In this document: positions 4,441 through 64,000 of the stretch, in pieces
Layout of the letters: the number at the start of each line of letters is the position of its first letter
How positions within the stretch are numbered: the first letter of the stretch is position 1
Origin: Protula sp. h YS-2021
Taxonomy: Eukaryota > Annelida > Polychaeta > Sabellida > Serpulidae
Direction of reading: 5' to 3'
Assembly: GCA_949752745.1 (NCBI GenBank)
Contig: OX457026.1
Location: 48,640,456 to 48,704,455 of the forward strand
DNA: 64,000 bases
The notes under the pieces: model-generated
The model's input: only the letters and a program-made list of their open reading frames with translations
Told to the model about the DNA's origin: nothing
Databases searched by the model: none
Translations under genes and position numbers: made by a program

Positions 4441-42648
<38,208 letters not shown>

Positions 42649-45495: not shown

Positions 45496-45501
45496 CTTCT
45501 T
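45496..45501. repeat. Target site duplication, left copy (CTTCTT)
   Basis: CTTCTT directly precedes the terminal AGTAGTAGG and is repeated at 51045-51050. Removing the element joins ...AACTTACTTCTT to TTTGGCGACCCGCC, which restores an uninterrupted unit of the surrounding repeat. Confidence 0.92.
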
Positions 45502-46087
45502 AGTAGTAGGAAAACGACAGTTTTACCACACCCTGTGACGTCATAGGTCACGTGACACCCCCCTCCCCTCCCTAGGCGCCTGGCATAGACCCTATGGTGA
45601 AAAAGTGATGACCTCCCCCCCCCCCCCCCCCACCTAGGGGTCGACTGTCACGGGTAAGAAAATTTTGTTATTTCAGCCTAGTTATCCGTTTCAGACGATT
45701 CTGAGCAACTTTAGTTTTTATGACCGCCCCCCCCCCCCCCCTACGGGTCGACTGTCACCGGTAAGAAAATTTTGTGATTTCAGCATAGTTACCCGTTTCA
45801 GACGATTCTGAACAACTTTGGTTTTTATGACCCCCCCCCCCACCCCCCAGTCCCAGTGGTCGACTGTCACCGGTAAGAAAATTTTGTGATTTCAGCATAG
45901 TTATCCGTTTCAGACGATTCTAAAGAACTTTGGTTTTTATAGGTATATTTCGGTGATTGGTGATGTAGGAAGACCGCGCTCATTCGAACATGTCTTCGAA
46001 TGGCAAGCCCATTCAAACACATGTTCGAAAGAGCAGTCCATTCAAAACACGTGTTCAAATTATTTTTTGGATCATATGACGTCATGG
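45502..46087 (+). repeat. Left terminal inverted repeat of compact element
   Basis: It runs AGTAGTAGGAAAACGACAG, TGTGACGTCATA at bases 33-44, then GTCACGTGAC, a C-rich tract, CATAGACCCTATGG and three units of about 105 bp. Each unit has a C10-C17 tract, GGTCGACTGTCAC, GGTAAGAAAATTTTG, TTTCAGC and CCGTTTCAGACGATTCT. The inner part has hairpins of the type CATTCGAACATG...CTTCGAATG (45980-46010) and TGACGTCA at 46079-46086. Confidence 0.9.
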
Positions 46088-46726
46088 CATTGTTCAACAA
46101 TTTTTTTTAAACAAGTTGTTCAACAATTGTTCAACAAATTGCTTAACATGTTTATAAACATGTTCAACATGTTCTTAAACATGTTTAACATGTTCTTAAA
46201 CATGTTCAACATGTTCTTGAACATGTTCAACATGTTGCTGAACATGTTCTTAAGCATGTTCAACACGTTCTTGAACATGTTCAGCATGTTACTGAACATG
46301 TTCTTAAACATTTCAAACATGTTCAACATGTTCAACTTGTTGCTGAACATGTTCAACATGTTGCTCAACATGTTCTTGAACATGTTCAACATGTTGCTGA
46401 ACATGTTCTTGAACATGTTCAGCATGTTCAACATGTTGCTGATCATGTTCAACATGTTGCTGATCATGTTCAACATGTTGCTTAACATGTTCAATATGTT
46501 GCTGAACATGTTCAACATGTTCTTGAACATGTTCAACATGTTCTACATGTTTATAAACATGTTCAACATGTTCTTGAACATGTTCAACATGTTCAACATG
46601 TTACTGAACATGATCAACATTTTGTTGAACATGTTCAACATGTTCTTGAACATGTTAAACATATTAAACATGTTCAACATGTTCTTGAACATGTTGCTGA
46701 ACATGTTCAACATGTTGTATATAAAA
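46088..46726 (+). promoter_or_regulatory. AACATGTT palindrome array followed by TATATAAAA
   Basis: About 42 copies of AACATGTT, mostly as GAACATGTTC or CAACATGTTC/G, fill 46110-46719 with a 9+12-bp rhythm. The last copy is followed directly by TATATAAAA (46718-46726), about 146 bp before the ATG at 46872. GAACATGTTC fits the p53-family half-site consensus RRRCWWGYYY. The same arrangement, inverted, precedes the PC4-like gene, which is why I read it as a duplicated promoter/enhancer. The 282-codon + frame and 139-codon - frame through it are palindrome artefacts. Confidence 0.6.
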
Positions 46727-46871
46727 CTATGTTTTAAGACTTTTTTCATCATTTCAAAAGTGTATGTTGAACCGAAAGGTATAAATGCCACATTTGTGTG
46801 AAATCTTACAATTGGCCACAAAGTCTTAAAAGGCAGTTAAAGGATGCTCACACTTCAGTAGCGGATGAAGA

Positions 46872-47600
46872 ATGGAAAATCCTGTAAAACCACCTTTCAC
46901 GGACACTTTAGATGAGTCTTCTATGGAAAGTCAAAGCGTCGACGTGACTGACATTAATGCACATGCTTGTACAGAATGTGGTGCATTATACAATAGCGAA
47001 GAAGCTATGTTCAAACATATGGGGCAGTGTGGTGAGGGTGCTGATGACAGCAGTTCAGACAGCAGTTCTGACAGACTCTGTTTGGTATGATATGGTCCAA
47101 GAGTAAGATAACTATGATGACAAATTTCAAGAAAAGGTTTCAGAATATGAAGAACAAGGGCTTGAAGATGCGCGTCAAATAGCAATGATGACCTTCGACC
47201 CATTTATAAGCATGGGCTAAAACAACTGTTTATGAGACTATTCAAATATACCCAACGCCTAGAACAAAGCGAACATTATCAAACCATTTTAGAGGACCTT
47301 AATTACTTTGTTGATGAAAAACATTACAAGTATTCAAAGGCACTAAAGTCGGCTATAAAGAAAAACAATGCATTCTTTGAAGGGCTACTAGATAAGGAAG
47401 AGGAGGAGGATGACAGCAGTGATGAAGACGGTGATATCGACAGTGAACAGAATGAAACAGATGAAGAAAAATTTACTTATTTGACTTATTTGACTAAACT
47501 TTATAATAAAGACTTCATAAATCTTGTAATATTTTATTCACTTAAGCGTTGTGTATTAATATATGTCTTGCTTTGCAACAATGAAGTTGCGAGGGGCTAA
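46872..47600 (+). pseudogene. Polinton zinc-finger/acidic protein, broken
   Basis: It starts at ATG 46872. The first frame (to 47090) has a C2H2-like finger CTECGALYNSEEAMFKHMGQC at residues about 33-53, with the second histidine replaced by Cys, followed by an acidic Ser/Asp run. After a stop the coding signal shifts frame (47070-47220, with an internal TAA) and continues at 47232-47600 with an alpha-helical segment and a second acidic run (EEEEDDSSDEDGDIDSE). Finger, acidic run and helical C-terminus are what I recall for a common accessory protein of Maverick elements in invertebrates, function unknown. At least two frame breaks and one stop, so probably dead. A polyA signal AATAAA follows at about 47679. 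Confidence 0.6.
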
Positions 47601-47873
47601 GGTCCCTGGCGCGGTGTGAATTCACCCGTAAACCAAATATGATATATTATAATGAAGTACTATGTATTGTATGAGAAAAATAAAAAGTTGAAAAGCATCA
47701 TATGTGTTTTTATTGAATATTACAAATATGCACAATTATGATCAAAACAATATTTCAAATACATATTATGTTAATACATGTGCCCACTCACAAGAACTTG
47801 ATATAAGTTTACAAATATTATAAAAACTGACTTCACATCAACATAGATTGATAATGTTAATTCATTTCATAGT
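47601..47873. terminator. Convergent polyadenylation region
   Basis: AATAAA lies on + at about 47679, and on - (TTTATT) at about 47709. The two convergent genes of the compact element thus appear to end within about 40 bp of each other. The rest is AT-rich with no other feature. Confidence 0.5.
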
Positions 47874-48122
47874 CTACATATCAAGCATAAAGACAATTTC
47901 ATTTGAACTACATATCAAATGTACATGTCCATTTGGGTCAAAGCTAAGTTTCAAGTTCTTGTCAAGCCTCAAAAACTTTGCTCCAATCTTCTGCACTGAG
48001 GGTGATGAAACCATAGCATCCACTAAGCTCGTCCTACTGTTAAAATTGTATATAGCGTTCACCGTCTCGTTCAATGACTTTCTACTCAACCATCTTCTGA
48101 CAGTCACTGCATTTATACACAT
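47874..48122 (-). CDS. Small unknown ORF overlapping the end of the PC4-like gene
   Basis: Eighty-two codons starting at ATG 48120-48122, overlapping the last 13 codons of the PC4-like gene in another frame. The product has balanced composition (VRRWLSRKSLNETVNAIYNF) and reads more like protein than its + strand counterpart. It could be a separate small gene or a frameshifted C-terminal extension of the PC4-like protein. I do not recognise it. Confidence 0.35.
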   Translation of the reverse strand: MCINAVTVRRWLSRKSLNETVNAIYNFNSRTSLVDAMVSSPSVQKIGAKFLRLDKNLKLSFDPNGHVHLICSSNEIVFMLDM

Positions 48123-48636
48123 CCATTTCCTGAAGCATAAGATCTACTGACGTCATTTGCTTCTTCAGCATTTGCCAATCTTTCAATGACAACAAAATTC
48201 CCCTTTTGGTAGGATATAACCTCCCAGATGTGTGATCCGTAATATATTTACGAATGTTAACCATCACTTTCTGTTGATATTTCGCCAATTTAATATATAT
48301 TTCTCTATTAATGGGTATCATAACCGGTAAATCATCTACACTCATCTTTTTCGTGGACTTTGTAGTGGCAGCTTTACTCTCCGGTTCTCGCTTCATTTTA
48401 GGCTCTGTCTTAATTTTTCGCTTTTTACACGGCGATGTCGTAGCTGGTAACTCATGTCTTTTTATCTTTCTAAGATGCGGTCGCTTTTGACGCTGCTGCA
48501 TTGGTAGTGACTTCACCTCAGACTTTACCATGGGCATTGCCTTAGACTTTGCTGTAGGTATTGTCTCAGGCTTTGCTATAAAATCTTCTGGAGGCATTAT
48601 CTTAGACTTTTCTGCAGGCATTGTCATAGATGACAT
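48082..48636 (-). CDS. PC4-like ssDNA-binding/transcription cofactor protein
   Basis: 184 residues from ATG 48634-48636, uninterrupted. Residues 1-110 are a low-complexity basic tail with KSKxMP-type repeats and nuclear-localisation-like clusters (SPCKKRKIKTEPKMKRE). Residues about 115-170 match the PC4/p15 C-terminal fold: a strand ending in VNIRKYI, a turn, PTKRGILLSLKDWQMLKK, then an amphipathic helix. PC4 dimers bind single-stranded or melted DNA and assist RNA polymerase II. The C-terminus adds CSDC, a possible half metal site. The gene faces the zinc-finger gene and has its own AACATGTT array plus TATA box about 230 bp upstream. A relative lies in the larger element (58629-58985). The role in the element is inferred: replication or transcription of its DNA. 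Confidence 0.75.
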   Translation of the reverse strand: MSSMTMPAEKSKIMPPEDFIAKPETIPTAKSKAMPMVKSEVKSLPMQQRQKRPHLRKIKRHELPATTSPCKKRKIKTEPKMKREPESKAATTKSTKKMSVDDLPVMIPINREIYIKLAKYQQKVMVNIRKYITDHTSGRLYPTKRGILLSLKDWQMLKKQMTSVDLMLQEMDVYKCSDCQKMVE

Positions 48637-48865
48637 GTTTACTCTTCAGTATCTTAATACAGAATGTGTGTTACGTCTGAGGGCGGGTGCCTTTTATGCT
48701 CTATAGGAAGTTGTCACACTCGACATTGGACACACTATGCCGTAATATGTTTAGAAATAACTACATGTGACTTTGTAGCCAATTGTAAGATTTCAAACAA
48801 ATGTTGCATTTATACCTTTCGGTTCAACATACACTTTTCAAATGATCAAAAGTCTTAAAACATAG
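48637..48865 (-). other. Leader of PC4-like gene, inverted copy of 46727-46815
   Basis: Bases 48780-48865 repeat, inverted, the stretch between the left array and the zinc-finger gene (GTATGTTGAACCGAAAGGTA, ATAAATGC.ACATTTGT, ATCTTACAATTGGC). Both genes therefore share the same 5' leader as well as the same array. Confidence 0.8.
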
Positions 48866-49195
48866 TTTTATATACAACAAGTTGTTGAACAACATGTTGA
48901 ACATGTTTAGCAACATGTTAAACATGTTTAAGAACATATTGAACATGTTTAAGAACATGTTGAACATGTTCAAGCACATGTTGAACATGTTGAACATGTT
49001 CAAGAACATGTGGAACATGTTCAAGCACATGCTGAACATGTTGAACATTTTTTGAACAACATGTTGAACATGTTGAACTTGTTAAACAACATTTTGAACA
49101 TGTTGAACAACTTGTTGAACATTTTGTTGAACAATTGTTAAACAGCTTGTTGAAAAAATACTTGTTGAACAATATCATGACGTCATATGATCAAA
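48866..49195 (-). promoter_or_regulatory. Inverted AACATGTT array plus TATA box before the PC4-like gene
   Basis: On the - strand the order is TGACGTCA (about 49177-49184), GTTCAACAA-type words, about 15 AACATGTT palindromes, and then TATATAAAA (48866-48874). It is a shorter inverted version of 46079-46726, with more decayed units. Confidence 0.58.
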
Positions 49196-50348
49196 AAAAA
49201 ATCGAACACGTCTTTTGAATGGGTCTGTCATATTCTATTTATAGAAGATCCTGTTTGTCATTCGAACGCATCTTGTGAATGGGCAGAGCTTCTCATTCAA
49301 ACACGCCCTAGAGTGATGTGTTAAAAAAAACTTACTTACTGTGGATCTAACACTTCGCCTTCAACGCCGCGCAAATGACTTGGCAGATAAGACCAATGTG
49401 AAGTTTCCAAGAAGAACAAAAAAGGCCACTTTTCTTTGTTACATGATATGGGGGGAGGGGAGGGGGGTCCCCAGACGGCGGCTACCCATTCGAGCACACC
49501 TTGTGACTGTTTGTCATTCGGTCACATCTTTAAATGCCGTGTTCAGCTGTTTCAATTGTACAGTGAAAAAAACTGCAGTTTTCCTTTGTTACAAGTAACA
49601 AAGACGGGTGTGACAGATATTTCTGCTGACCGGCACAGGCATCTTGGAGGAAATTTCATTGCTCGCCACGCGGTGAGTCTTTGTTCTAGCCGTCTGCCCG
49701 CACATCAGAGGCTTCTCACACTCACGTCTTCTCACATTATCTCAAAGCATAGAGTTTAAAGAGGAATTCAGACAGAAATATCTCCTCACTGAGTTGGATA
49801 TGTATCTCTTTGAAGAAAACTTCGCAGGTTAGTTTTTTTTTATCATAACCACATCAAATATATACAAATTCTAGCGTCTTTCTAAATAAAGAAAATTAGG
49901 CAGACTGACTTACGTGATTCACTTAGATAACTTTTCTATAAGCTTTTTTCCCGTTCATTTCCTACATATTGTGCCTGATTTTAATAACTTGATTAGAATG
50001 TACTCCGTTATTGTTGCCTGTCATATTTTTAGATACTGCTTTGTTGTTGTCGAAAGGAGTTTATCTGTCAAGTACATATAAGTACAAAAAAACATTTGGG
50101 CAAAGCCTTACTTCATGAGGCTGCATCACTAATACAAACAGGGCTTTGTCTAACAAAAAAAACATTATACTAAATCACTTCCCTATTCCACGTAACTGAT
50201 AAAAACACTGTACTTATTTATGCCATATTAAGGCCGTCTGTCGCTAATGACTTTATGCGTCTGTTGTGTATATAATAGGTATATCTAGGCCAACTGTCAC
50301 TTCACGCGTATTGCCTCACATAATTGCTTGACATTTGACCTGGTAAAA
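49196..50348. other. Interior of compact element, mostly unassigned
   Basis: Bases 49200-49320 repeat, inverted and diverged, the CATTCGAAC / GTTCGAATG hairpin region of the left end. CTTTGTTAC occurs twice (49434 and 49583), bracketing 150 bp with a G-rich tract. Around 49680-49828 one + frame stays open to a possible donor GCAG|GTTAGT with coding-like FKEEFRQKYLLTELDMYLF, but no acceptor or start was settled. The rest (49830-50340) is AT-rich and unrecognised. Confidence 0.35.
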
Positions 50349-50684
50349 CTAGAGTGATTTTTTTAAATAACTGAAAAATACACTTAAAAAATAATAATAA
50401 AAATAAATAAAAAAGTAGTGGGAAAAAGAGCGTTCTACGCCAGTCAGAAAATCCCATCCTTGATAAAAAAGCATGTATATAATTTCATCCATATTGTCTC
50501 TTTGACGTTTAATAGAAGATTTATCTAAACATTCGTGAAAGGTGTTTTTATAGGGTTTTTCCATATCCTTCTCCCATTCTTCTGAAGTGTGAGCATCCTT
50601 TAAATGTCTTTTAAGACTTTGCAACTTGTTGAATGGACTGCTCATTCGAACATGTGTTTGAATGGGCTTGCCATACGAACACAT
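50349..50684 (-). pseudogene. Inverted fragment of the zinc-finger gene 5' part
   Basis: On the - strand this encodes SLKRHLKDAHTSEEWEKDME followed by a KPYKNTFHECLDKSS segment, which aligns with the start region of the gene at 46817-46930 (there split between two frames: LKDAHTSVADEEWK, then PVKPPFTDTLDESS). HxxxxH spacing in KRHLKDAH suggests the end of a C2H2 finger. The inverted repeats of the element therefore reach into coding sequence on both sides, and this arm keeps the frame that the left arm has lost. Homology fades after about 50400. Confidence 0.6.
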
Positions 50685-51044
50685 GTTCGAATGAGCGCGG
50701 TCTTCCTACATCACCAATCAGCGAATTATACATATAAAAACCAAAGTTCTTTAGAATCGTCTGAAACGGATAACTATGCTGAAATCACAAAATTTTCTTA
50801 CCGGTGAAAGTCGACCCCTATGGGGGGGGGGGGTCATAAGAACCAAAGTTGTTCAGAATCGTCTGAAACGGATAACTAGGCTGAAATCACAAAATTTTCT
50901 TACCCGTGACAGTCGACCCCTAGGGGGGGGAGGTCATCACTTTTTCGCCATAGGGTCTATGCCGGCTGGCGCCTAGGGGGGGGGGGGGTGTCACGTGATC
51001 TATGACGTCACAGTGAGTGGTAAAACTGTCGCTTCCCTACTACT
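50640..51044 (-). repeat. Right terminal inverted repeat of compact element
   Basis: Reverse complement of the left end with about 90 percent identity by eye: AGTAGTAGG.AA.CGACAG, TGTGACGTCATA at the same bases 33-44, TCACGTGAC, CATAGACCCTATGG-like, then two (not three) C-tract units, then TGATTGGTGATGTAGGAAGA and the TTCGAACATGTG hairpin. The AACATGTT array is absent on this arm. Confidence 0.9.
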
Positions 51045-51050
51045 CTTCTT
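51045..51050. repeat. Target site duplication, right copy (CTTCTT)
   Basis: Matches 45496-45501 and is followed by TTTGGCGACCCGCCAAAAAT, the continuation of the split host repeat. Confidence 0.92.
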
Positions 51051-51345
51051 TTTGGCGACCCGCCAAAAATTGTTTAAATGGGGGGTGGGGGCGGTCATTT
51101 TTTTACTGATTGCCAATTTTCAAAATACTTCATCTCCTACAACTTGGATGGGATTCCTTTCCAATTTTGATGTTTCTGTCTTATGAAATTACTTTTCTTT
51201 TGCGGTTCACCAAAAATTTTGGCCAAATGGGAGGGCATTTATAATTTTATGGTTGCCAGTTTTTGAAATGCTTCTTCTCTCACAATTTTGATAACATTTT
51301 CTTCAAATTTTGAACGAATGTACGCATGATCATTCCCCAGACCCA
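51051..51345 (+). repeat. Right half of the host repeat split by the compact element
   Basis: Two degenerate units with GGCGACCCGCCAAAAATTG, AATTTTCAAAATACTTC and CACAATTTTGAT, as in 5512-7000. Confidence 0.8.
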
Positions 51346-53829: not shown

Positions 53830-54095
53830 AGTAGTATGAAAACGGGGGTGCTGCGTCACTTTGTGACGTCATAACAGGCGTAACCATGGTAACGACCTCC
53901 CCCCAGGACATATTATGTACCGACCCCCCTCCTAGGACATACTATGTACCGACCCCCCCCCCCCCCCTAGGCGGCAGGCGGGACAGACCCTATGATAAAA
54001 AAGTGATGACCTCCCCCCAGGACATACTATGTACCAACCCCCCCCCCCCTAGGATATACTATGTACCGACCCCCCCCCCCCCCCTAGGAGAGCAA
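53830..54095 (+). repeat. Left terminal repeat region of larger element
   Basis: After the shared 45-bp end come four copies of AGGACATACTATGTACCGAC followed by C-tracts (near 53905, 53932, 54018 and 54049). Between them is GACAGACCCTATGATAAAAA, also found in the compact element. Frames here are artefacts. Confidence 0.8.
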
Positions 54096-54118
54096 GATTT
54101 AGCCGAATCATCATTAAT

Positions 54119-54130
54119 AAGCATATATAG
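54119..54130 (+). promoter_or_regulatory. TATA box of the first gene of the larger element
   Basis: CATATATAG lies about 45 bp upstream of ATG 54174 and just inside the terminal repeat. Confidence 0.45.
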
Positions 54131-54173
54131 GTGCTGTGTCTCGAGGCTTAGCAATGACATCGCTAGAAACATC

Positions 54174-55359
54174 ATGGACAGCACACCTCAGGAGACTCCA
54201 GCTATCAACACAGACATGGATGACCTGTTTAGCTTTGAAACAGTTACTTTTGATGATGCATTATTACTGGTGGAAGAGCTGACAAAGCTTTGGAGGAAGC
54301 GTTAGGCGCTCCGTCAGATGTCACCGCAGTGCAGCAGGGAATGCCTCAGGAAAAAGCCTTGGAGGAAGCGTTAGACGCTTCATCAGACGTCTCTACAGTG
54401 CAGCAAGGAATGCCAGATCCTGAGGGACCTGACTACCCGTTCTGGGTTGCGAATAAACTTGTAAATGGTAGCAACTCACAACTTAGCGCAAAGTTAAAAG
54501 CATATATGGAGCATTTTGAGGAAAACGAAGTGAGTGATGACGACGATGAGGATTCAGAAGTGGACATGTCAAGCGATGACGAAGAAGGTAAACATCTGAA
54601 ATCTAAAATTGAATCAAGCATGACCATACCTGTTACTGAGGAAGATGTCACGCTGTTGAAAAGAGACTTTCAAGCAGTGCTTCCTCTGATTGATTGCAAC
54701 ATTTTATTGTGTTTATGTGAAGAAGGCTTTACAACCAACACACGTAAATGCACTTAACGGAAGAAGTGAATACTGTTATTCAACTCGTCTACATGCTAGA
54801 AGGAAACCTAGAGCATGTTTTCCCGTCAGAGCCAAAGTTCTCCAAAGCCATGATCCGACGTTATGTTCAACTTATTAAACGTCTTCGTGAGGAACTTTTT
54901 AACACTTTATGTCTACCAGCGCCAAAGTGTGTTGATGAGGATCGCGATTCTAAATGTGCAAAGGTCATGCTACAGGGCTTCAAATACCTTGAAGAACGCA
55001 TTCAGGTGTATGATATGATGGCTTACCGCTATGAAAAAGAATATTTTACCATGCCAATGGTCTTTAAATGGATAACAGGTAGTCGCGAACGAAGAGATTT
55101 TTTAGTGATTGTCATGACACAATCTCTAACAAACGGTTTGCCAACAACCTTTCTTGATGGTTTCAACGAGATGACTCCGCGATTTTACAAACATCTCATG
55201 AGAACCTACATGTAACACCTGTACAAAAGGAGTGGATCAAAGTCATTGTACAGCCATGAAGAAGAAGAGCAGCTTGGAAGAGTGAGACGTGCATTTCAAG
55301 CAGCGATAACTCCTACTGAGTCAGCAATTTTGACAAGTTTGACAACTTTGACAATTTAA
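54174..55359 (+). pseudogene. Acidic Polinton protein of unknown function, broken
   Basis: It starts at ATG 54174 (MDSTPQETPAINTDMDDLF). The frame shifts near 54280, again near 54745, and a stop at 55213-55215 interrupts a frame that stays coding-like to 55359. Visible parts: two tandem copies of about 23 residues (ALEEAL...SDV..VQQGMP) at about residues 40-85; a long acidic run (EVSDDDDEDSEVDMSSDDEE) near residue 125; then a helical domain of about 150 residues (54748-55215) rich in charged pairs; and finally a basic/TPTES tail. Intact length would be near 390 residues. Its place next to the left end, before the polymerase, and its acidic nature resemble the zinc-finger/acidic gene of the compact element, but I see no sequence match. 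Function unknown. Confidence 0.55.
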
Positions 55360-55545
55360 CAAGTTACACACCACATTTTGATTACATCGAAGTGGTATGA
55401 AAGGAAGAGTGAGACGTGCATTTCAAACAGCGATAAATTCTGCTGAGTCAGCAATTTTAACAAGTTACACACCATATTTTGATTACATTAGCATAAAGTA
55501 GCATTAAAGGAAGAGTGAAACGTGTATTTCACCCATTTCAGTTCT
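55277..55545 (+). repeat. Imperfect internal duplication
   Basis: GGAAGAGTGAGACGTGCATTT begins blocks at about 55273, 55402 and (diverged) 55508. The first two continue with CAGCGATAA...GCTGAGTCAGCAATTTT and AACAAGTTACACACC. The first copy overlaps the end of the acidic gene; the others are non-coding. Confidence 0.75.
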
Positions 55546-55561
55546 AGCAACAACAACACCG

Positions 55562-58500
55562 ATGGCAGCAGTCTTCTGTCATGATTACAATGTGACATTT
55601 CCATCTCTGGAATTGTTCGTGGCACATACATGCATACATCGTGAAGAGCTTATTGAGAAGATTGAAGCCAAGAGACGAAAGGCGTTGCAAGATGGCGTTG
55701 ACAGACCTGATCCAGTCCTCTGCTGTGGATGCACTAAAATATTTTCATCTTTGGATGCGTTCGAGGCACATGCATGTGTACCGATTGGAGAACAAAAGAC
55801 AGCACAAGTAGGCAGAGGCAGAAGAGTTAGTCTTGGTGAAAACGCACAGGAAAGACGGTTTGAGCCTGAAGATTTATCGGATTTACTGCTTGAAATGCAA
55901 CAACAAGAGAATCGGATCAAGGCACATTTGCTAGAAACGTTAAACCATGAAATGAAATGGTATATTGTCATACATGCGCGCTTCAAGAAAATGACGGCGA
56001 ATGCCGAATATGTTATGGTAGAACAAGTGGATAATGCCTTCATCAGCAGTCCAACATATGCAGCATACAATCCAGCGGATATTGAGAAGGACTTGCCAGA
56101 AGCCTATAAAGAATTGTTTACCAAGTTTGATGAACATGAGCGACAAGGTTCTGGCTTGGTGTTGGATAACATACTGTGCATTGAAGTGCATACAGCTACG
56201 TCATCACCACTGGAAGTGAGTAGTTTTATCAAACTGCCGAAGAAAGTGAAGAATACAAAAGCTGTGTTGAACATTCGGAATAAAGACAACAAGTGTTTCT
56301 TATGGTCTGTATTGGCTCATCTTCACCCTTCAACAAATAGAAACCAATGCCGTGTGAATCAATACAAAGTATTTGAGAAGGAATTAAAGGTGGAAGGTAT
56401 GACATTTCCGACACCGATTACAAACATTCCAAAGTTTGAAAAGGAGTGTTATGTGTCTATCAATGTGTTTGGATATGAACATAGTTGTTCCGATACAACT
56501 GAGTCGAAACAGCGCGAGAGAAATCAAATTCCTTTTGATTAGCGATGACAAGAAAAGACATTACTGCCTCATCAAGAATTTCAGCAGACTTATGGCTTAT
56601 CGATCAAAGCATAAGGCTGCAGCATTTTATTGTTTCAACTGTCTTCACGAGTTTATGCGACAAGATCTTTTAGATGAGCATCACGAAGTGTGTGGTAAGC
56701 ATGGAGCGCAACGTTTATCATTCCCTAAGAAACCTTTCATCAAGTTTAAGAATGTAGTCAAACAACAGCGAGCACCTTTTGTGATTTATGCGCACTTTGA
56801 ATGTTTCACGAAAAAGCATGAAGAAGGAGACAAGTATCAGCATCATCGTCCAAACAGCTTCGCCTATGTGGTTGTTAGTCAATATGACACACGTGCACCA
56901 GTCGTGTATCGAGGAGACAATGCTGTGAAAGTCTTTTTAGACCATATGGTGAATGAGCGTGATCGTATTGTGCATGGTTTACAACAGAAAAAGGAAATGG
57001 TGATGACTCGTGAAGACAAAGATAATTTCAAGAACGCTGTCGATTGCTACATTTGTCATGAGCCTCTAGGAGCGGATCGTGTGAGAGATCATGACCATAT
57101 CAATGGCAAATACCGCGGAGCTGCACATAATGAATGCAACTTACAATTTCGACTTAGGAAGGATAAGCAGGACGATAAAGATTCTTTTATCATTCCTGTA
57201 TTTTTCCACAATTTACGAGGTTACGACAGCCATTTGATCATGGAAGAAATTGGAAAGTTTAAAAATGAAACGATTACAGTCATTCCCAACACCGTTGAGA
57301 AATATATTGCATTCACCATGAGCAATCTGAAATTTACGGACAGTTATCAGTTTATGAGTACTTCTCTACAGAAGTTGGTATCCAACGTTGCGGCAGAAGG
57401 GAAAGACAACTTTTATAACATGACGTCACACATTCACAACAGTGACCAACAAGATTTGTTGCTGAGAAAGGGAGTGCATCCTTATGATTATGTGGACGAG
57501 TCATCCAAGTTTGCGTAAACACAACTACCGTCCAAGGACAAGTTTCACAGCCAACTCAGTGAAGAAGACATTAGCGATAAGGATTATGCGCATGCACAGA
57601 AGGTATGGGATACATTAACTGTACTACATTTGAATACCATGACCTGTACCTGAAATCATATGTGTTACTGCTGGCTGACGTGTTTGAAAACTTTCATCAA
57701 GTATGTTTTAACACATATGAATTGGATCCTGCTCATTACTATACAGCGCCAGGACTGTCGTGGGATGCGATGTTGAAAGCGACAAAGGTGAAGTTGGAAT
57801 TGATCAATGACATTAACATGTACCAAATGGTTGAACAAGGTCCACGTGGAGGAATATCTGTCATCACACAGAAGTATGCGAAAGCAAATAACCCCTACGT
57901 AGTCTGCAAAACCAACCAATTGCATGGTGTACCTGGATGCAAACAACCTGTATGGTTGGGCCATGTCACAAAGCATGCCAGAAAGTGGATTTATGTGGGT
58001 GAGCGAGCCAGAATCCGTCGACTTTATGGATGTGGATGAAGATGACGAGATTGGATACATTTTAGAAGTGGATTTAGAATACCCACAGACCATTCATGAT
58101 CGTCATAATCACTACCCAGTGGCTCCAGCACGGAAAAGTATCAAAGTGGGAAAATTGTCAGAGCATAGTCAGAAGCTACGAAGATCTAAACATGAAAGAC
58201 AAACCTAGTGAAAAGCTCATTCCCAACTTGTGTGACAAGAAGAAATATGTACATCTACGCAAAGTGGATTTGCTTCTGGATAAACCCATTCAAGTCGGCT
58301 TCACCATTCTTGACCTCAGCAAAGTGCTCATGTTTCACTTTCATTACAACTACATCATGACCAAAGACGTATGAAACATAAGCAGTATAAAGACAGTTTG
58401 TTCAACCACACGCAAACGATGGCTACAGGACACATCATTCGAAGTCATGACCAGATTTTCTCGGAGAAGATGAGGAAAGTGGCTCTCTCTCCCTATGACG

Positions 58501-58562
58501 ACAAGCAATATGTGCTGAATGATGGCTATTCCACTTTGGCGCATGGGCATTACAGTATATAA
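55562..58562 (+). pseudogene. Polinton family B DNA polymerase, degraded
   Basis: This is a protein-primed-type family B polymerase that would replicate the element. It begins at ATG 55562. Residues 1-90 hold two finger-like motifs (second: CCGCTKIFSSLDAFEAHAC), then the usual N-terminal region (KAVLNIRNKDNKCFLWSVL). Exonuclease motif I is altered (YAHFECF where DxE is expected), exonuclease II is present (FFHNLRGYDSHLI), and exonuclease III has Tyr for the usual Asp (YLKSYVLLLAD). An HNH-like zinc segment (CYICHEPL...DHDHINGKYRGAAHNECN) sits between I and II. Motif A is present (YLDANNLYGWAMSQ, 57924), but the segment with motif B and motif C (DTDS) is missing near 58255-58370; the C-terminal RSH...VALS.DDK.Y..DG..TLAHGHY block remains. 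Frame breaks lie near 56495, 57605, 57925, 58185 and 58370, with a stop at 57516-57518. It is inactive. About 1000 residues would be seen, against 1100-1300 in intact relatives. Confidence 0.88.
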
Positions 58563-58563
58563 G
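58556..58563 (+). promoter_or_regulatory. TATATAAG box overlapping the polymerase stop codon
   Basis: TATATAAG includes the TAA stop (58560-58562) of the last polymerase frame and lies 66 bp before ATG 58629 of the PC4-like gene. A G-tract follows immediately. Confidence 0.55.
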
Positions 58564-58628
58564 TGGGGGGGGGGGGGAGGGACTCTCCAACTTGAGAGTT
58601 AGTTGAGGTGTGAACACTGAACGTGAAC

Positions 58629-58985
58629 ATGAATCGAAAGAGATCTGCAACGGATATGGATACTCTTGCAGATACAGTTAAAGAGTTGAAAGTGAAAAAT
58701 CTTGACAATACCACCACCATCAAGAAATTGAAAGTGGAGACGACACCAACACCACCACAGTCGTGGGAGGGAATGCTTTCTCTAGGCAATGGAAAGTATA
58801 TCAAGATTATGAAGCAAAGCAATGAAGGAGTGGTAAACATGCGCAAATACCTCAGAGATGAGGGAACTGGAAGAAACCGTCCTACGAAAAAAGGAATTTT
58901 GCTGACAATACCTGAATGGAAAATGCTGAAGAAGCAGGTGAAAGAAGTGGACAAAGGGCTTTGCAGACAAGAAGACAGCGCATAA
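58629..58985 (+). CDS. PC4-like ssDNA-binding/transcription cofactor protein
   Basis: 118 residues from ATG 58629 (a frame extending to 58623 begins with GTG and is not needed). Residues 1-45 are charged and probably coiled or disordered (TVKELKVKNLDN). Residues about 50-112 match the PC4/p15 domain: MLSLGNGKYIKI strand, VNMRKYL, PTKKGILLTIPEWKMLKKQV, then a short helix. The domain is close to that of the compact element (shared pattern RKY, PTK.GILL, W.MLKKQ). The gene is intact although its neighbours are broken. In the element it may coat displaced single strands during replication or help late transcription; this is inference from the fold. Confidence 0.78.
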   Translation: MNRKRSATDMDTLADTVKELKVKNLDNTTTIKKLKVETTPTPPQSWEGMLSLGNGKYIKIMKQSNEGVVNMRKYLRDEGTGRNRPTKKGILLTIPEWKMLKKQVKEVDKGLCRQEDSA

Positions 58986-59051
58986 CAAGGTACTGTCATC
59001 ATAAGCGCACTCCTTTTTAACGACGGTGTTTATTCCACCGTGAATGAAGTG

Positions 59052-59291
59052 ATGATAAATTCTGCTTATCGGTTTAAACCTGAAGTGTGGAAAGACTTTC
59101 AAAACATACCGCTTGAACCTGGGTTTAAACGCAGACTTGAAGATAATGTTGAAGTGATGGTGATTGGACATGATTCTGACATACGTGTTAGATTCTGGAA
59201 AAATCTTTTACAGGATTATTCAGAGGATTATAATGGAGATGGACCAGATACTCCATATACAGATTTGATTGACTTTAATATCAAGAAATGA
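59052..59291 (+). CDS. Small unknown Polinton ORF
   Basis: 79 residues from ATG 59052 (the open frame reaches GTG 59040). Acidic C-terminus (QDYSEDYNGDGPDTPYTDL). No domain recognised; it may be the remnant of a larger gene. It follows the PC4-like gene by 66 bp and could share its transcript. Confidence 0.4.
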   Translation: MINSAYRFKPEVWKDFQNIPLEPGFKRRLEDNVEVMVIGHDSDIRVRFWKNLLQDYSEDYNGDGPDTPYTDLIDFNIKK

Positions 59292-59342
59292 CACGCAGTC
59301 ATACAATTTGTAGATATCATGCAGCATCCGCTCTTCGCCATC

Positions 59343-59349
59343 ATATAAG
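59343..59349 (+). promoter_or_regulatory. TATA box before the 59386 gene
   Basis: CATATAAG lies 37 bp upstream of ATG 59386. Confidence 0.4.
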
Positions 59350-59385
59350 CACTGTCACAGACGAGATAGCTCATAGTTAAACGAG

Positions 59386-59819
59386 ATGGAGGACTATTTG
59401 TTGGATTATGAACCCATCACATATGGATTCTCATATATGAGAAACTTATGTGATGAGATTGTGCTAAGACATTTTGGAAAGTATGTCATACTTTCGCCTG
59501 ACGACCAATCCGTGTTGAAGGATCATCTAGACAAGTTGAGGATGCCCGGCTTTCTCCCTGTACTCTCAAATGAATCAGAAGTGCGTGTGACTCCGTCTAG
59601 ACGTGTTTGTACAATTTCGCCAACATGACGAACTTACAGAACACTACGACATCATCACCCTCAGCACAGTGGAATGGAAGGCGCTGTTACAAGCATTGGA
59701 TTGGGAAGAACCTTATGCTTGAATTCAAAGAGGAAGGAATACAACTTATGCGGGGTAGCAAATCCATTGAGCTGACACATCCCATGTGTGTGATGGACAT
59801 AGACATTAATGAAGATTGA
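59386..59819 (+). pseudogene. Small unknown Polinton gene with two frameshifts
   Basis: ATG 59386 starts MEDYLLDYEPITYGFSYMRN. Near 59605 the coding signal moves to a second frame (VQFRQHDELTEHYDIITLST then VEWKALLQAL), and near 59720 to a third that ends at 59819 with LEFKEEGIQLMRGSK and an acidic tail. About 144 codons in all. The middle part (FRQ, then ITLS..EWKALL) has the rhythm of a PC4-like domain, which would make it a divergent third member; this is weak. Function unknown. Confidence 0.42.
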
Positions 59820-59999
59820 TATGAACTGAAACTGTCTGAACATGAAACTTTTACAGTGATAAAGTTTGGTGATGTGAGTTATGTGAGTTTTCATAGCATT
59901 TACAAATGTGAGTGTAATGTCTATGATACATATATTAATTTAGATTCTAATGAATGGCATTCATTGATCAATGTATTGAATGCATTTAGTGACATGTAT

Positions 60000-60196
60000 T
60001 GAATGTGTTTTGTAAATAGAGTTTGTAAATAAAAGTTTGCAAATAACAGTTTGTAAATAAGAGTTTGTAAATAGAGTTTGTAAATATAAGTTTGTAGATA
60101 AGAGTTTGTAAATAGAGTTTTGTAAATAAAAATTTGTAAATAGAGTTTGTAAATAGAGTTTGTAAATAAGAGTTTGTAAATAGAGTTTGAAACACA
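60000..60196. repeat. 13-14-bp repeat GTTTGTAAATA.AGA between convergent gene groups
   Basis: About 13 copies of TTTGTAAATA(A)GAG lie between the + and - gene groups. GTAAATA fits the forkhead consensus RYAAAYA, but AT-rich chance matches are easy. AATAAA follows on + at about 60197 and on - at about 60224, so this is the convergent 3' end region. Confidence 0.85.
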
Positions 60197-60339
60197 ATAA
60201 ACAAGACAGTTGTTTGAAACTTGGTTTTTTATTGATCATCAAAATTGAACAATTATCAACAACTTAATTAATATAACTAACTTAACTAATATAAGTTAAC
60301 TACAACTTAACTACAACAACAACAACAACAACAGCAACA

Positions 60340-60774
60340 CTAATAAAACAAAGGCTTATAATGTCTGTATACAAAATCCTTTACAATAAAATCACCATCC
60401 TTTCTTTTTAATATATTGACAATATCAAACATACTCTGATCTCGAGCTCTATGCAATATACGATATACACAATAAAAACCACATGACGATGATATTTGTG
60501 TTTGAAATGATACGGAATTATACACATAGTCATTTCTCAAAAACGTTTCTAAACGATCATCTAGAGGTAAAAGTCCATAAGAGTCAAAATATTCTACAGG
60601 ATCTTTGTCATGATACACTGCCACCCAATGTTCTCCTGGTTCATCTTGATCGTCTGTGTGGATGACATAGGCATCGCGTTGTAAAGACGATAACTGGTTC
60701 ATGGCAAACACGGTTTGAAACAAGTCTTTTGTCATGACATGGCTCAATATGGCATCAATCTGCTTCGTGTTCAT
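60340..60774 (-). CDS. Adenovirus-type maturation cysteine protease
   Basis: 144 residues from ATG 60772-60774, uninterrupted. Matches the short Polinton version of the adenain (C5/Ulp1-like) protease, which cleaves capsid precursors. Expected active-site elements are visible: His in GEHWVAVY (about residue 48), acidic residue in EYFDSYG (about 60-65), Gln in FQTQISS and Cys in SSCGFYCVYRI (about 98). An N-terminal MNTKQIDAIL is typical. It is the first gene on the - side of the convergence and the last in the capsid group. An intact catalytic set next to a broken capsid gene suggests recent or uneven decay. Confidence 0.9.
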   Translation of the reverse strand: MNTKQIDAILSHVMTKDLFQTVFAMNQLSSLQRDAYVIHTDDQDEPGEHWVAVYHDKDPVEYFDSYGLLPLDDRLETFLRNDYVYNSVSFQTQISSSCGFYCVYRILHRARDQSMFDIVNILKRKDGDFIVKDFVYRHYKPLFY

Positions 60775-62142
60775 GACTGGTAGTCGAATTGGATGCTGCG
60801 ATTTGCACTAATTTCAAAAATTTTGTCAAATTCAGCATAGACGATAACATTGATTGTATGTTGCAAAGCCCTGCTAAAATTCATTTCTAGCCGCGAATTT
60901 CCATACTTGATTAGGGAAAAATGATCATCACCATCATAATCAGGTGTTAAGTCGAACGAAAATGAAGCATAACCTCTAGGCCAATCTTCCCGTTTTATGA
61001 TAGAACTTTTCTCGCCATTCAATCTATCAAACGATTTGTAAAGCGTTTCAAAAGTGTCCAGGTATTTGTTCTGTGTAATGGCAAGCTTGAGAGGTTTGGA
61101 TAGAACTGGTTCACCATCAGTGTACAGTTGCATTTAGTCTAGATCAAAATGTTTGAAATCATATGGATTTCTCAATGCTGTTCCACCAAAGGCTTCATTA
61201 TGAACCAGAGCAATGACAATGCGTTTTGGTAATTGACCCAGAAAGATGTTATCTTTCACAAAAGACTGAAATTCTGCTGGAATGGCCAAAACTTTATTCT
61301 TTTCTAGTGATGAGAAACTTGGCAGGACTTTTCATCAATGCATCTGTATGTCCTAACTGAATACCTGGACTAACCCTCACTTTGCGAATGGTTAAAAATG
61401 CCTCTTTCACTTCTACCTTATAGGTATTATTTGCAGCCATCAATACATGTTCATCTTTTTGTCTATGGAAACGCAATTTAAAACTGATGCCATTAGGAAG
61501 ATAATGATCCTGCTCAAACAAATTTACCCTTAAACCACCTTTTAGCACAAAATCACGGCTGAGACGTGTATGCAAATAACGATTATGTAAATCATTATTT
61601 CCTTGCTCAGCTAGGTCATCACCGTCAGCATTGACATGAAACCCTGATACATATCGTTCATGATTAGGTCTTTTCACCTCATAACTATTCATTGACCCAG
61701 CAGTATCCTTATACATGAGGCGCATAGAGCGCTCAGAATGGAGACTTTCTTCCGAATCATGAATGAGGTGAGAGATAATACTGGTATAACCATGGGTATT
61801 GTTACTATGGGATATCAATCGATCATTCAGAAACAACTCAATATTAGACCATAACCCATTTAACAAATCATTGATGCATGATACATTATCATCTGCGCCA
61901 CAGGCTGTTCCATCAGCCTTTACAATGCGACATATAATATGAAGTTTGCTGTTCTTTAAATCCAGATATTCTTCTGTACTCGCAGGAATGTAGAATTCTA
62001 TTGGAGCGCCTTCTCTAATGGTAGTGAGTGGTTGATAGTCAACATTATAACTTTTCTCTACAGCAGTTTGCGTCGGTGGTATGTGAAACCATTCCAATGG
62101 AGAAAGACTACATTCACACGAATGATTATGAATGAGAGACAT
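60771..62142 (-). pseudogene. Major capsid protein (double jelly-roll), broken
   Basis: This is the virion-type major capsid protein of Polintons, annotated in animal genomes as F54H12.2-like. Frame 1 runs from ATG 62140-62142 to TAA 61294-61296 (282 residues; IEFYIPASTEEYLDLKNSKL near residue 50 is the first jelly-roll signature). The homologous sequence continues one frame over (about 61290-61137; FLGQLPKRIVIALV is characteristic), hits an in-frame TAA at 61134-61136, and goes on from 61133 to 60771 with LSKPLKLAITQNKYLDTFET and the family-typical C-terminus. One frameshift plus one stop; total length (about 455 codons) is normal, so little is deleted. Its downstream end overlaps the protease start by 4 bp (ATGA). 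Confidence 0.9.
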
Positions 62143-62160
62143 GATTAAAAGATATCTTTT

Positions 62161-62487
62161 TTAATATTTTTTGATGTTATCCGTCTGGCTGTTTTTCGTC
62201 TTCTGACACGGTTGCACCCCCTTTTCAAGCATATCGCCAATCACATGCTGTGCAACTCGACCTGTAACATCTTTCGCGACATTCTTTGCAGCCTTTTTAA
62301 GATGTGGCGCAGCGATCTTAGCCCCTGCCTTAAGTAGTGGAATAGCTTTACGAGCCAGTGATCCCAGTATTGAACCAATACCATCGTCATATTGAATTCG
62401 CGCTCCTTTGAATCCTGGTAATTCCCCGTCCACTTGACGAAGAAAATGGTTGCGATATGCAGACGGATCGTTTGTGTAGGCTTTCAT
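62161..62487 (-). CDS. pVI/pX-like basic core or membrane-active capsid protein
   Basis: 108 residues from ATG 62485-62487. The central segment GIGSILGSLARKAIPLLKAG followed by Lys/Ala-rich helix (PHLKKAAKNVAKDVTG) is the short amphipathic pattern seen in a small virion protein encoded beside capsid genes in Polintons and adintoviruses, compared with adenovirus pVI/pX. Its start overlaps the stop of the penton-like gene (ATGA), suggesting coupled expression. Intact. Confidence 0.7.
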   Translation of the reverse strand: MKAYTNDPSAYRNHFLRQVDGELPGFKGARIQYDDGIGSILGSLARKAIPLLKAGAKIAAPHLKKAAKNVAKDVTGRVAQHVIGDMLEKGVQPCQKTKNSQTDNIKKY

Positions 62488-63248
62488 AATGCTTTTGGTC
62501 GAAAATGAAGTTTACAGATCACCTTTCCAGTTTGAAATGTAACATTATGGCCTGTGTCGTCCTTAATATTCATTTCTATCACGTCAAATTTGGACGTGTT
62601 TACAGGAACATAATGCGGTTCGCCGTAAGTTTTCATAACAATATCGACATCATGGCCTTGAATGGGAACAGAACGTAGCAAAGGAACATAATAATCGCCA
62701 ACAACTTGTGGTTCCCAAATGCTACAATACACATAAAGTGTATAAAAATCCTGTTTCACATCGGCTTTATGATCACCTGTACACGTTTCAGCATACCATT
62801 GATCTGGGATAAATCCTAAAATCTCAGCTAATCCTGCGGAGAATGACACTTCAAAGTTGTAATTTAGAAAAAGAAAAACTTGTGGTCTAATTTTATCATA
62901 CTTTAACCGAATAGCTTGTTTAAGATAATCTTTCATAGAATTAGCCGCTTCTTCATTCACTGCATTACATATCTCTTGTATGGTTCTGTAATAACCATAA
63001 GGAACAGTGATTGTGTCAAGGACAGAATCTGTCAGTTGTTGTTGTCGATACTGAATAGAATAGTCCATCCCATGTCTCATAGTTGTCCATGTATGTGGAT
63101 ATTGAATTTCGGCTAAAGCCACTTCATATTTTCCTTTCAGATAGATGGTTCGAGGCATATGAATTTGGTTATTCGAAGCCTTGTTGTTGGGATAATAGTT
63201 CATACTAGCATTGCTAGGCAAAGTAATGCAAAAACTTGTTGACTCCAT
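62484..63248 (-). CDS. Minor capsid (penton-like) protein
   Basis: 254 residues from ATG 63246-63248, uninterrupted. The N-terminus (MESTSFCITLPSNASMNYYP, then NKASNNQIHMPRTIYL, YEVALAEIQYPHTW) is characteristic of the conserved minor capsid gene (often called PX) next to the major capsid gene in Polintons; a single jelly-roll penton is the accepted model. The C-terminus ends KLHFRPKAL. It overlaps the pVI-like gene by 4 bp and, at its start, the small Cys-rich frame. Confidence 0.8.
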   Translation of the reverse strand: MESTSFCITLPSNASMNYYPNNKASNNQIHMPRTIYLKGKYEVALAEIQYPHTWTTMRHGMDYSIQYRQQQLTDSVLDTITVPYGYYRTIQEICNAVNEEAANSMKDYLKQAIRLKYDKIRPQVFLFLNYNFEVSFSAGLAEILGFIPDQWYAETCTGDHKADVKQDFYTLYVYCSIWEPQVVGDYYVPLLRSVPIQGHDVDIVMKTYGEPHYVPVNTSKFDVIEMNIKDDTGHNVTFQTGKVICKLHFRPKAL

Positions 63249-63477
63249 AATGACTATATGGTATATGTGCGTTGACGGAATGGATGTCTATATACATCAC
63301 TATAGCGCGCACCATTCGCATGTGTAAATGATGTTTCTCATCATCGTTCACATCATTATGATCTACATGGTCTATTACTTCTCTTTCACAACAAGCACTT
63401 GCACATCTTATTTTTATGTGATTTGTCGTTTCTTGACAACAACATAGCTCTTTAAGCCATGTTAAAAATTTTCCCAT
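63214..63477 (-). CDS. Small MG-start Cys-rich protein
   Basis: 87 residues from ATG 63475-63477. MGKFLTWLKELCCCQETTNH followed by IKIRCASACC gives a possible N-terminal myristoylation site plus seven cysteines in the first 30 residues, a layout I recall for small membrane-linked proteins of Polintons. After about residue 45 the sequence looks less conserved, so the frame may be shifted there. It overlaps the penton-like gene start by about 35 bp and the upstream gene end by 16 bp. Confidence 0.5.
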   Translation of the reverse strand: MGKFLTWLKELCCCQETTNHIKIRCASACCEREVIDHVDHNDVNDDEKHHLHMRMVRAIVMYIDIHSVNAHIPYSHYGVNKFLHYFA

Positions 63478-63999
63478 CCTTCAGGAAACTGTCTTTGTTG
63501 ACGCTGTTTCATTTCTGTTTTAATGTCGTCACGAGTGGTCTTTTTACTAAACATTGTTATTGGAATATTAGCATCTACAATTTCCTGGATAAACGGATGC
63601 CAACCATGTGGTATTGCTCGTTCTTTTCTTCTTGTCGCAACCAATGCTTCTTTCATCAAATCAACAATGTCAGAATTTGTAATGACATCGCCCGTTTTCA
63701 ACACAAGTTCATTCTTGTCTGTCCATTTTACACCATGTTTCTTCAGTTCTGCTAAAAGTTGTATTACTTTTCCATGATAGATAGGTTGAAAATGACTTAG
63801 AAATAACTTTTCTGGTTTTTCAGGAGATGGAACAGAGATTTGTCTGGATTGATTTATTCATAAATGACGACCAAGAAGTTGAGACATTTCCATGGCCTTT
63901 TCACGAGTTCGTTTCCCATGTAAAAGTTTATTTAATGCCACTATCTTTCTTTTCTAATAACATTTTGTATTCATATTCAGGAATGAGAACCATTTTCAT
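63462..63999 (-). pseudogene. Conserved Polinton protein of unknown function, broken
   Basis: ATG at 63997-63999 starts MKMVLIPEYEYKMLLEKKDS, then a frameshift (about 63930) leads to ALNKLLHGKRTREKAMEMSQ, a TGA near 63857, and a further open stretch to 63462 ending in PHGWHPFIQEIV and QFPEGWENF. Order and sequence style (short N-terminal strand, basic middle, GW..F motif) match a conserved unknown protein coded upstream of the capsid group in Polintons. One frameshift and one stop. Confidence 0.55.
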
Positions 64000-64000
64000 A

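What the first reader, a model, noticed from the sequence alone, without database searches (positions are those of the whole stretch)
45502..51044. Compact Polinton-type element with exact ends and its own two-gene cargo
A 5,543-bp unit has perfect terminal AGTAGTAGG / CCTACTACT, a perfect 6-bp duplication CTTCTT, long inverted repeats, and restores a split host repeat when removed. Yet it lacks polymerase, integrase and capsid genes. It keeps a zinc-finger/acidic gene and a PC4-like gene instead. A reduced Polinton that retains putative regulators but not its replication machinery would be an unusual non-autonomous type.
Basis: partly seen in the sequence, partly recalled or inferred. Interest (0 to 1): 0.75.

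Follow-up and report, generated by a model that had tools for sequence, protein, structure and literature searches.

The report
Gene-carrying satellite of Polinton transposons
A short DNA element in an animal genome has the ends of a large virus-like transposon but none of its copying machinery, carries two small regulator-like genes, and has close relatives at many sites, so it looks like a parasite living on its larger relatives.

Summary
Observation confirmed. Window 45502-51044 (5,543 bp) has perfect AGTAGTAGG/CCTACTACT ends, a CTTCTT duplication and inverted repeats (94-95% in the main blocks), and sits inside a host repeat. No long-Polinton core gene is detected in it.

It is not a unique deletion. 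A 34-mer of its PC4 gene occurs exactly at 291 places in the 863-Mb genome and at 1,057 within 3 mismatches (control 0). In the 29 best-scoring other PC4 loci, DNA of the zinc-finger (ZF) gene lies within 1.5 kb in 29 of 29. Four further complete copies (5.6-6.6 kb) have perfect 6-bp duplications and no core genes.

"Own cargo" needs correcting. PC4 is also a gene of the long Polintons here, directly behind the polymerase gene in 4 of 4 examined (about 40% identical). The window copy's right arm is a long Polinton's right end (89% over 1.45 kb), and its ZF gene is broken. Intact ZF copies (243 aa) exist elsewhere; ZF shows purifying selection, short PC4 only suggestively.

Best reading: a non-autonomous Polinton satellite moved in trans by long Polintons, with PC4 as single-strand-binding helper or coactivator and ZF perhaps binding the AACATGTT arrays before each gene. 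Trans supply and both gene roles are inferred.

The parts
45496..45501 (.). left target-site duplication CTTCTT
51045..51050 (.). right target-site duplication CTTCTT
45502..46045 (+). left terminal inverted repeat, ending AGTAGTAGG, with internal C-tract-bounded sub-repeats; first 67 bp 94% identical to the right end of the long Polinton at C7:72910212-72940113
50629..51044 (-). right terminal inverted repeat
46145..46716 (.). left array of AACATGTT palindromes (42 of the 56 in the element)
46718..46727 (+). TATA-box-like TATATAAAAC directly after the left array, ahead of the ZF gene
   Evidence: consensus match only, no transcript evidence
46780..47471 (+). ZF gene (two C2H2 fingers, acidic stretch, predicted helical C-terminal region), frame broken in this copy; unbroken 243-aa frame in copies B and C
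48082..48636 (-). PC4-like gene, intact 184-aa frame; PF02229 E 1.5e-9; human PC4 1pcf E 4.3e-6
48690..48699 (-). second TATA-like GCATAAAAGG about 55-65 bp before the PC4 start codon
   Evidence: consensus match only
48865..48874 (-). TATATAAAAC, inverted copy of the ZF promoter, upstream of PC4
48891..49104 (.). right array of AACATGTT palindromes (14 of the 56)
49255..50634 (+). right arm: 88.8% identical over 1,451 columns to the right end of a long Polinton (C7:72937856-72939296); at two other places it directly abuts a Polinton integrase gene
50484..50642 (-). relic of the ZF gene's first finger at the inner edge of the right inverted repeat and right arm
53830..64000 (+). neighbouring long Polinton (continues to C3:48709223, 14.9 kb in all; duplication GTCACG): comparison element, not part of the short one. 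Integrase (PF00665) and ATPase (PF02456) supported by Pfam; polymerase by recalled motifs; protease and capsid labels by eye only
58623..58982 (+). PC4-like gene of the long Polinton, directly behind the polymerase gene; PF02229 E 8.1e-8

Best explanation
The element is a non-autonomous Polinton (Maverick): a satellite that keeps the ends recognised by Polinton integrase and, presumably, by the protein-primed polymerase system, and is copied and inserted in trans by long Polintons of the same genome. It keeps two convergent genes. Each stands behind an array of AACATGTT palindromes and a TATA box; the two promoters are inverted copies of each other. PC4 is a diverged paralogue of the PC4 gene that the long Polintons carry beside the polymerase gene, so I take it to be a single-strand-DNA-binding helper of strand-displacement replication and/or a transcription coactivator. 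ZF most likely binds DNA, perhaps the arrays themselves, and so controls both genes. Shown: ends, duplications, copy number of the PC4 gene, no detected core genes, ends shared with long elements, PC4 in long elements, selection on ZF. Inferred: supply in trans, the roles of PC4 and ZF, array binding, promoter use.
For: Perfect ends and 6-bp duplications at W (CTTCTT), A (GTTCGA), B (AAAGGC), C (ACCCCG) and E (TACATT). PC4 34-mer: 291 exact, 1,057 within 3 mismatches, reversed-pattern control 0. ZF-region DNA within 1.5 kb of PC4 in 29 of 29 loci (the best-scoring ones besides the window's; two of them overlap), at least 90% of the ZF region in 25 of 29. No core-gene hit in the 30 PC4 loci L017-L046 nor in copies W, A, B, C, E. 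Partner elements: the long element C11:5714210-5724917 has the same ends plus polymerase and integrase homologues; C7:72910212-72940113 has polymerase, ATPase and further core-gene hits and shares the first 67 bp (94%) and 1.45 kb of right arm; at C5:41099112 and C6:67288035 the arm abuts an integrase homologue. Among the 110 scored polymerase matches many frames of 1,242-1,248 aa show no stop, so possible helpers exist. Recent activity: four loci, the query's own included, score as full identity over the 243-aa ZF protein; copies A, B, C are 96-97% identical over their longest aligned stretches of 4.4-6.5 kb. Selection on ZF: omega 0.27-0.43, reached by 0-3 of 300 neutral simulations in each of six pairs (five of the six share one member).
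Against: No experiment, no transcript, no observed excision. Twelve short elements were followed towards their ends and eight were complete; most of the 1,057 PC4 places were not read, so the number of complete copies is unknown. The C7 partner is decayed, holds another Polinton in inverse orientation, and its flanking hexamers do not match cleanly; the C11 hexamers match in 5 of 6. The ends of the long copies with the intact polymerase frames were not matched to the short ends; only subterminal blocks are shared (about 85% over 300 bp). L012, a 6,150-bp copy, keeps a polymerase N-terminal fragment. Selection on short PC4 is not clear: in seven of eight pairs 21-106 of 300 neutral simulations were as low, in one 7. 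Selection could have acted in a lost autonomous ancestor. ZF gave no fold match and only a poor model. The polymerase itself matched no Pfam polymerase family even at full length.
Confidence: 0.72

Rival explanations
1. Ordinary internal-deletion derivatives: the long Polinton lost its core genes and what is left (an old regulator plus an SSB) is passive hitch-hiking with no role.
For: The right arm is long-Polinton DNA; L012 (6,150 bp, duplication GCGGAC) keeps a polymerase N-terminal fragment beside ZF and PC4; a ZF relic lies in the long element's right end; PC4 exists in long elements; selection on short PC4 is weak.
Against: Short PC4 is only about 40% identical to long PC4, so the split is old and not a fresh deletion. 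No intact ZF was found in the long-element pieces read. ZF shows purifying selection among short copies and the gene pair is kept in 29 of 29 sampled loci, in 25 nearly whole.
Confidence: 0.2
2. A host-derived gene pair (expanded PC4 family) that was captured by Polinton ends and serves the host.
For: Bivalves are reported to have expanded PC4 families (PMC9223095, passages and section 3.1 read); many unbroken frames among the best-scoring PC4 places.
Against: The copies followed to their ends sit inside mobile elements with duplications and inverted repeats. The scallop single-exon PC4s have two PC4 domains, unlike the one-domain genes here. The host phylum was not named by any search.
Confidence: 0.05
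3. A distinct lineage with its own unrecognised mobility enzyme (the helical C-terminal half of ZF acting in transposition).
For: The C-terminal region of ZF is conserved and matches no Pfam family above cut-off and no viral fold at E 0.001; a 37%-identical full-length relative exists on a short ENA contig.
Against: Ends and 6-bp duplications are those of Polintons, whose integrase gene is present in trans (PF00665); the model is poor and no catalytic motif was looked for beyond the family searches.
Confidence: 0.03

Closest known systems
Polinton/Maverick self-synthesising transposons
   Same: AGT-type ends, long inverted repeats, 6-bp target duplication (end motifs and 6-bp duplications as in PMC8097293, passages); the neighbouring 14.9-kb element is a full-sized example
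   Different: no polymerase, integrase, ATPase or other core gene detected; 5.5-6.6 kb; two small genes under paired inverted promoters
Non-autonomous Polintons (recalled: Repbase and the early Polinton/Maverick papers; not seen in any call)
   Same: ends only, moved in trans
   Different: those that I recall are non-coding or decayed; this one keeps two genes, unbroken in many copies
Gene-carrying satellites: phage P4, virophages, transpovirons (recalled)
   Same: works-like: depends on a larger relative and brings its own regulators or helper
   Different: no capsid, no replicase, a chromosomal transposon; no interference with the helper shown
Phage T5 PC4 homologue, implicated in recombination-dependent replication (seen only as a citation in PMC9600219)
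   Same: a PC4 domain used by a selfish DNA element in DNA metabolism
   Different: unrelated element; function here not tested

Membership tests
Polinton/Maverick (autonomous) | AGT...ACT ends with long inverted repeats | tested here: met
Polinton/Maverick (autonomous) | 6-bp target-site duplication | tested here: met
   W, A, B, C, E, also L009, L012, L014/L015:
Polinton/Maverick (autonomous) | protein-primed polymerase and retroviral-type integrase | tested here: not met
   no tblastn hit in W or copies A, B, C, E
Polinton/Maverick (autonomous) | ATPase, protease, capsid genes | tested here: not met
   no tblastn hit with the neighbour's genes; the neighbour's protease and capsid labels are by eye and had no Pfam or PDB support
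Non-autonomous Polinton | shares terminal sequence with a resident autonomous-type element | tested here: met
   94% over the first 67 bp with the decayed C7 long element and 89% over 1.45 kb of arm; C11 long element with the same ends plus polymerase and integrase homologues
Non-autonomous Polinton | multiple insertions without core genes | tested here: met
   five complete core-less copies read (W, A, B, C, E); 291/1,057 PC4 places
Non-autonomous Polinton | mobilised in trans by Polinton proteins | not testable with these tools
   needs a transposition assay
PC4/Sub1 ssDNA-binding family | PC4 domain by profile | tested here: met
   PF02229 1.5e-9; PDB 1pcf/4usg
PC4/Sub1 ssDNA-binding family | binds single-stranded DNA | not testable with these tools
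   needs expression and a binding assay
Satellite of a mobile element (P4- or virophage-like) | depends on and interferes with a helper | not tested
   dependence inferred from missing genes; interference unknown

The most novel reading that the evidence does not exclude
A protein-coding satellite of Polintons: an animal transposon that has dropped replication and integration genes but maintains, under selection, its own DNA-binding regulator and a PC4-type single-strand-binding protein, both driven by mirrored promoters with operator-like palindrome arrays, and parasitises (and possibly controls) the long Polintons, in the way P4 lives on P2. With it goes the claim that a PC4-like gene is a regular part of the Polinton replication gene set in this host lineage.
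Probability: 0.4. Interest if true: 0.72.

Novelty: new variant of a known kind. Interest (0 to 1): 0.58.

Why it matters
Non-autonomous transposons are usually thought of as gene-free or decaying. One that keeps a gene pair across many sites would be a satellite with genes of its own and would let one ask what a Polinton needs in cis and in trans. The PC4 gene next to the polymerase gene in the long elements points to a possible single-strand-binding component of Polinton replication. It also warns that PC4 copies counted in animal genomes may include transposon genes; the one published family that I looked into (scallop) does not show this.

Tried and rejected
p53-type response elements: the window copy holds 16 GAACATGTTC and 27 RRRCATGYYY sites, but copies A, B and C hold 0 and 1 each. 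Only the AACATGTT core and the array are kept, so I dropped a p53 reading.

'Thousands of copies': the 6,774 (PC4), 6,520 (ZF) and 10,464 (polymerase) figures are loose first-look candidates; pattern counts give 291 and 1,057 for PC4. I use the latter. No such count was obtained for the polymerase, so I make no copy-number claim for the long elements.

Gene labels of the long Polinton: Pfam supports integrase (PF00665, 1.3e-10) and ATPase (PF02456, 2.4e-5). The polymerase matched no Pfam or NCBIfam polymerase family, in pieces or as an unbroken 1,236-aa frame from another copy, and no PDB chain; the label rests on motifs that I recall (NS-x-FG and DTDS) and a weak PHROG polymerase hit of one piece (0.0016; not seen with the whole protein). 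An endonuclease VII-like stretch lies inside it. The protease and capsid labels are by eye: no Pfam hit above cut-off and no PDB hit.

Relatives elsewhere: ZF, one protein in 5.8 billion (P0001, 37%); short PC4 none; long PC4 none; ZF and polymerase none in viral contigs. I do not know how many animal genomes these collections hold, so this is weak evidence. Fold search of ZF: nothing at E 0.001. Rfam: nothing at gathering score in 45400-51200.

Bivalve PC4 expansion as Polinton genes: a lead; section 3.1 shows that the scallop single-exon genes have two PC4 domains, so that case does not fit.

Of twelve short elements followed towards their ends, eight had both ends and a perfect duplication (W, A, B, C, E, L009, L012, L014/L015). 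Four had not: D (left end only), F (no end by the motif), L013 and L016 (end homology, but no intact pair of end motifs in the stretch fetched).

Literature: Polinton with PC4, 0 papers; phrases for non-autonomous Polinton/Maverick, 3 papers, all by 'Polinton-derived'; further searches. Subscription journals are mostly missing and Repbase is not held.
Full report
THE OBSERVATION. The 5,543-bp unit at 45502-51044 is as described: perfect AGTAGTAGG/CCTACTACT ends, the 6-bp duplication CTTCTT on both sides, inverted repeats of 94-95% in the main blocks, and an insertion into a host repeat whose other copies in the window align across the joined flanks. The 26-base end is found nowhere else in the window and 0 times in shuffles.

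GENES. The PC4 frame (48082-48636, minus, 184 aa) is intact and hits PF02229 at 1.5e-9 and human PC4 structures at 2e-6 to 4e-6. The ZF gene (46780-47471) is broken in this copy: two ORFs and homology in more than one frame. In copies B and C the same gene is an unbroken 243-aa frame with two C2H2 fingers, a Ser/Glu/Asp stretch and a conserved, predicted helical C-terminal region; in copy A it is broken too (the model is poor, mean pLDDT 60.5). No homologue of the neighbouring long Polinton's core genes is detected in the element.

A REPEATED LINEAGE. The genome is held (G000, 863 Mb; on). COX1 on contig C218 reads well with the invertebrate mitochondrial code, so I take it for an invertebrate animal; no call names it. 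PC4 protein search: 150 of 150 scored places match; by my hand count of the printed table 126 list no stop inside. These are the best-scoring places and so biased to unbroken copies. Pattern counts of a 34-mer of the gene: 291 exact, 1,057 within 3 mismatches, 0 for the reversed control. ZF protein search: four loci, the query's own included, score as full identity over 243 aa, and many others are listed at 91-100%. Of the 29 PC4 loci fetched besides the window copy (the best-scoring; L034 and L035 overlap), all 29 hold ZF-region DNA within 1.5 kb and 25 hold at least 90% of it. Copies A, B, C (6,348, 6,507 and 6,641 bp) have inverted repeats of about 2 kb (97% in A), 96-97% identity over their longest aligned stretches, and duplications GTTCGA, AAAGGC, ACCCCG. 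Copy E (5,647 bp, TACATT) has the window copy's module and arm.

RELATION TO LONG POLINTONS. The window itself holds a long Polinton from 53830, running to C3:48709223 (14.9 kb, duplication GTCACG). Pfam supports its integrase (PF00665, 1.3e-10) and its ATPase (PF02456, 2.4e-5). Its polymerase is named from motifs that I recall and one weak PHROG hit; no Pfam polymerase family matches, also not with an unbroken 1,236-aa frame of another copy. Its protease and capsid labels are by eye, without support. Directly behind the polymerase gene lies a 120-aa PC4 gene (PF02229, 8.1e-8). The same gene lies behind the polymerase in three other long copies fetched for the purpose (L063, L064, L065; 84% identical by tblastn), so 4 of 4. 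Short and long PC4 are about 40% identical. The window copy's right arm (49255-50634) is 88.8% identical to the right end of the long element C7:72910212-72940113. That element is decayed and has a second Polinton in inverse orientation inside; its left part has polymerase, ATPase and further core-gene hits, and its flanking hexamers do not match cleanly. At two other places the arm abuts an integrase homologue. The C7 element's right end holds a relic of the ZF gene's first finger. Long element C11:5714210-5724917, with the same ends, has polymerase and integrase homologues (flanking hexamers agree in 5 of 6 bases). Thus the window copy is a chimera of long-Polinton end and ZF-PC4 module, and genes for moving it are present in the genome.

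PROMOTERS. In W and C the ZF and PC4 genes are each preceded by an array of AACATGTT palindromes and a TATATAAA box, and the two promoters align as inverted copies of each other; B has TATA-like matches at the same places (56, 52 and 44 palindromes in W, B and C). In C the copy in front of PC4 extends into the first codons of ZF. A second TATA-like box lies close to the PC4 start. These are sequence matches, not mapped promoters.

SELECTION. Against simulations that keep the observed changes but place them at random, ZF shows omega 0.27-0.43 in six pairs, with 0-3 of 300 simulations as low; five of the six pairs share copy L044, so they are not independent. Long PC4 shows 0.32-0.33 in two pairs (3 and 4 of 300) and is uninformative in the third (43 of 300). 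Short PC4 is suggestive only: in seven of eight pairs (omega 0.46-0.63) 21-106 of 300 simulations were as low, in one pair (0.31) 7. The PC4 domain alone pools at 0.29-0.39 and the N-terminal part at 0.52-0.61 (no simulation). An earlier pooled table gave 0.36-0.68 for the two genes.

MECHANISM. Most likely a satellite: ends in cis, integrase and polymerase from long Polintons in trans, PC4 as ssDNA-binding helper or coactivator, ZF as regulator of the two mirrored promoters. The first step follows from Polinton biology and the shared ends; the gene roles are inference. Non-autonomous Polintons as such are known (recalled); a gene-keeping, amplified one with PC4 I did not find in print in the held library, which lacks most subscription journals. 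Of the papers, I saw passages of PMC6431247, PMC11071296, PMC11071308, PMC8097293, PMC9223095 (plus its section 3.1), PMC9600219 and PMC7831173; the rest only as search listings. PMC11071296 reports zinc-finger regulator genes in some adintoviruses (passage), which would fit a viral origin for ZF.

VERDICT. Real, repeated, with near-identical young copies, and ordinary in its ends. Unusual in keeping two genes, and informative because PC4 turns out to belong to the long Polintons as well.

Noticed in passing
window 58623-58982; L063, L064, L065: A PC4-like gene sits directly behind the polymerase gene in 4 of 4 long Polintons examined: a possible ssDNA-binding part of their replication gene set.
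   Followed up: partly
L034/L035 (C4:18669298-18673742); C2:69575465-69579754; C6:8503314-8507313: Palindromic dimers ZF-PC4-PC4-ZF; L034 is 98.6% self-complementary over 2,638 columns. Could be products of fold-back replication.
   Followed up: partly
L029 and L030 (C4:94335142-94345494): Two copies of the module 6.8 kb apart, same orientation, 3,528 of 3,537 letters equal: a tandem pair.
   Followed up: no
L012, C7:10461904-10468053: A 6,150-bp element (duplication GCGGAC) that keeps a polymerase N-terminal fragment beside ZF and PC4: possibly an intermediate.
   Followed up: partly
L009, C6:18643857-18647464: A 3.6-kb element with remnants of both genes (duplication TATATC) that contains two further AGTAGTACGAAAATG starts, each preceded by the same 12 bases TTCTAAAGTTAT.
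   Followed up: no
window 56403-57515; L069 200-3907: An endonuclease VII-like stretch lies inside the long Polinton's polymerase frame (PHROG 423, 1.5e-6; Pfam PF02945 below cut-off).
   Followed up: no
window 17000-22000: Strand-asymmetric stretch (AT skew about 0.35) with coding-like repeats (TTRQRMLNKHLHWSKIST...).
   Followed up: no
L055 5314-7320: Long open reading frame with a RING-finger look (by eye) just beyond the long Polinton.
   Followed up: no
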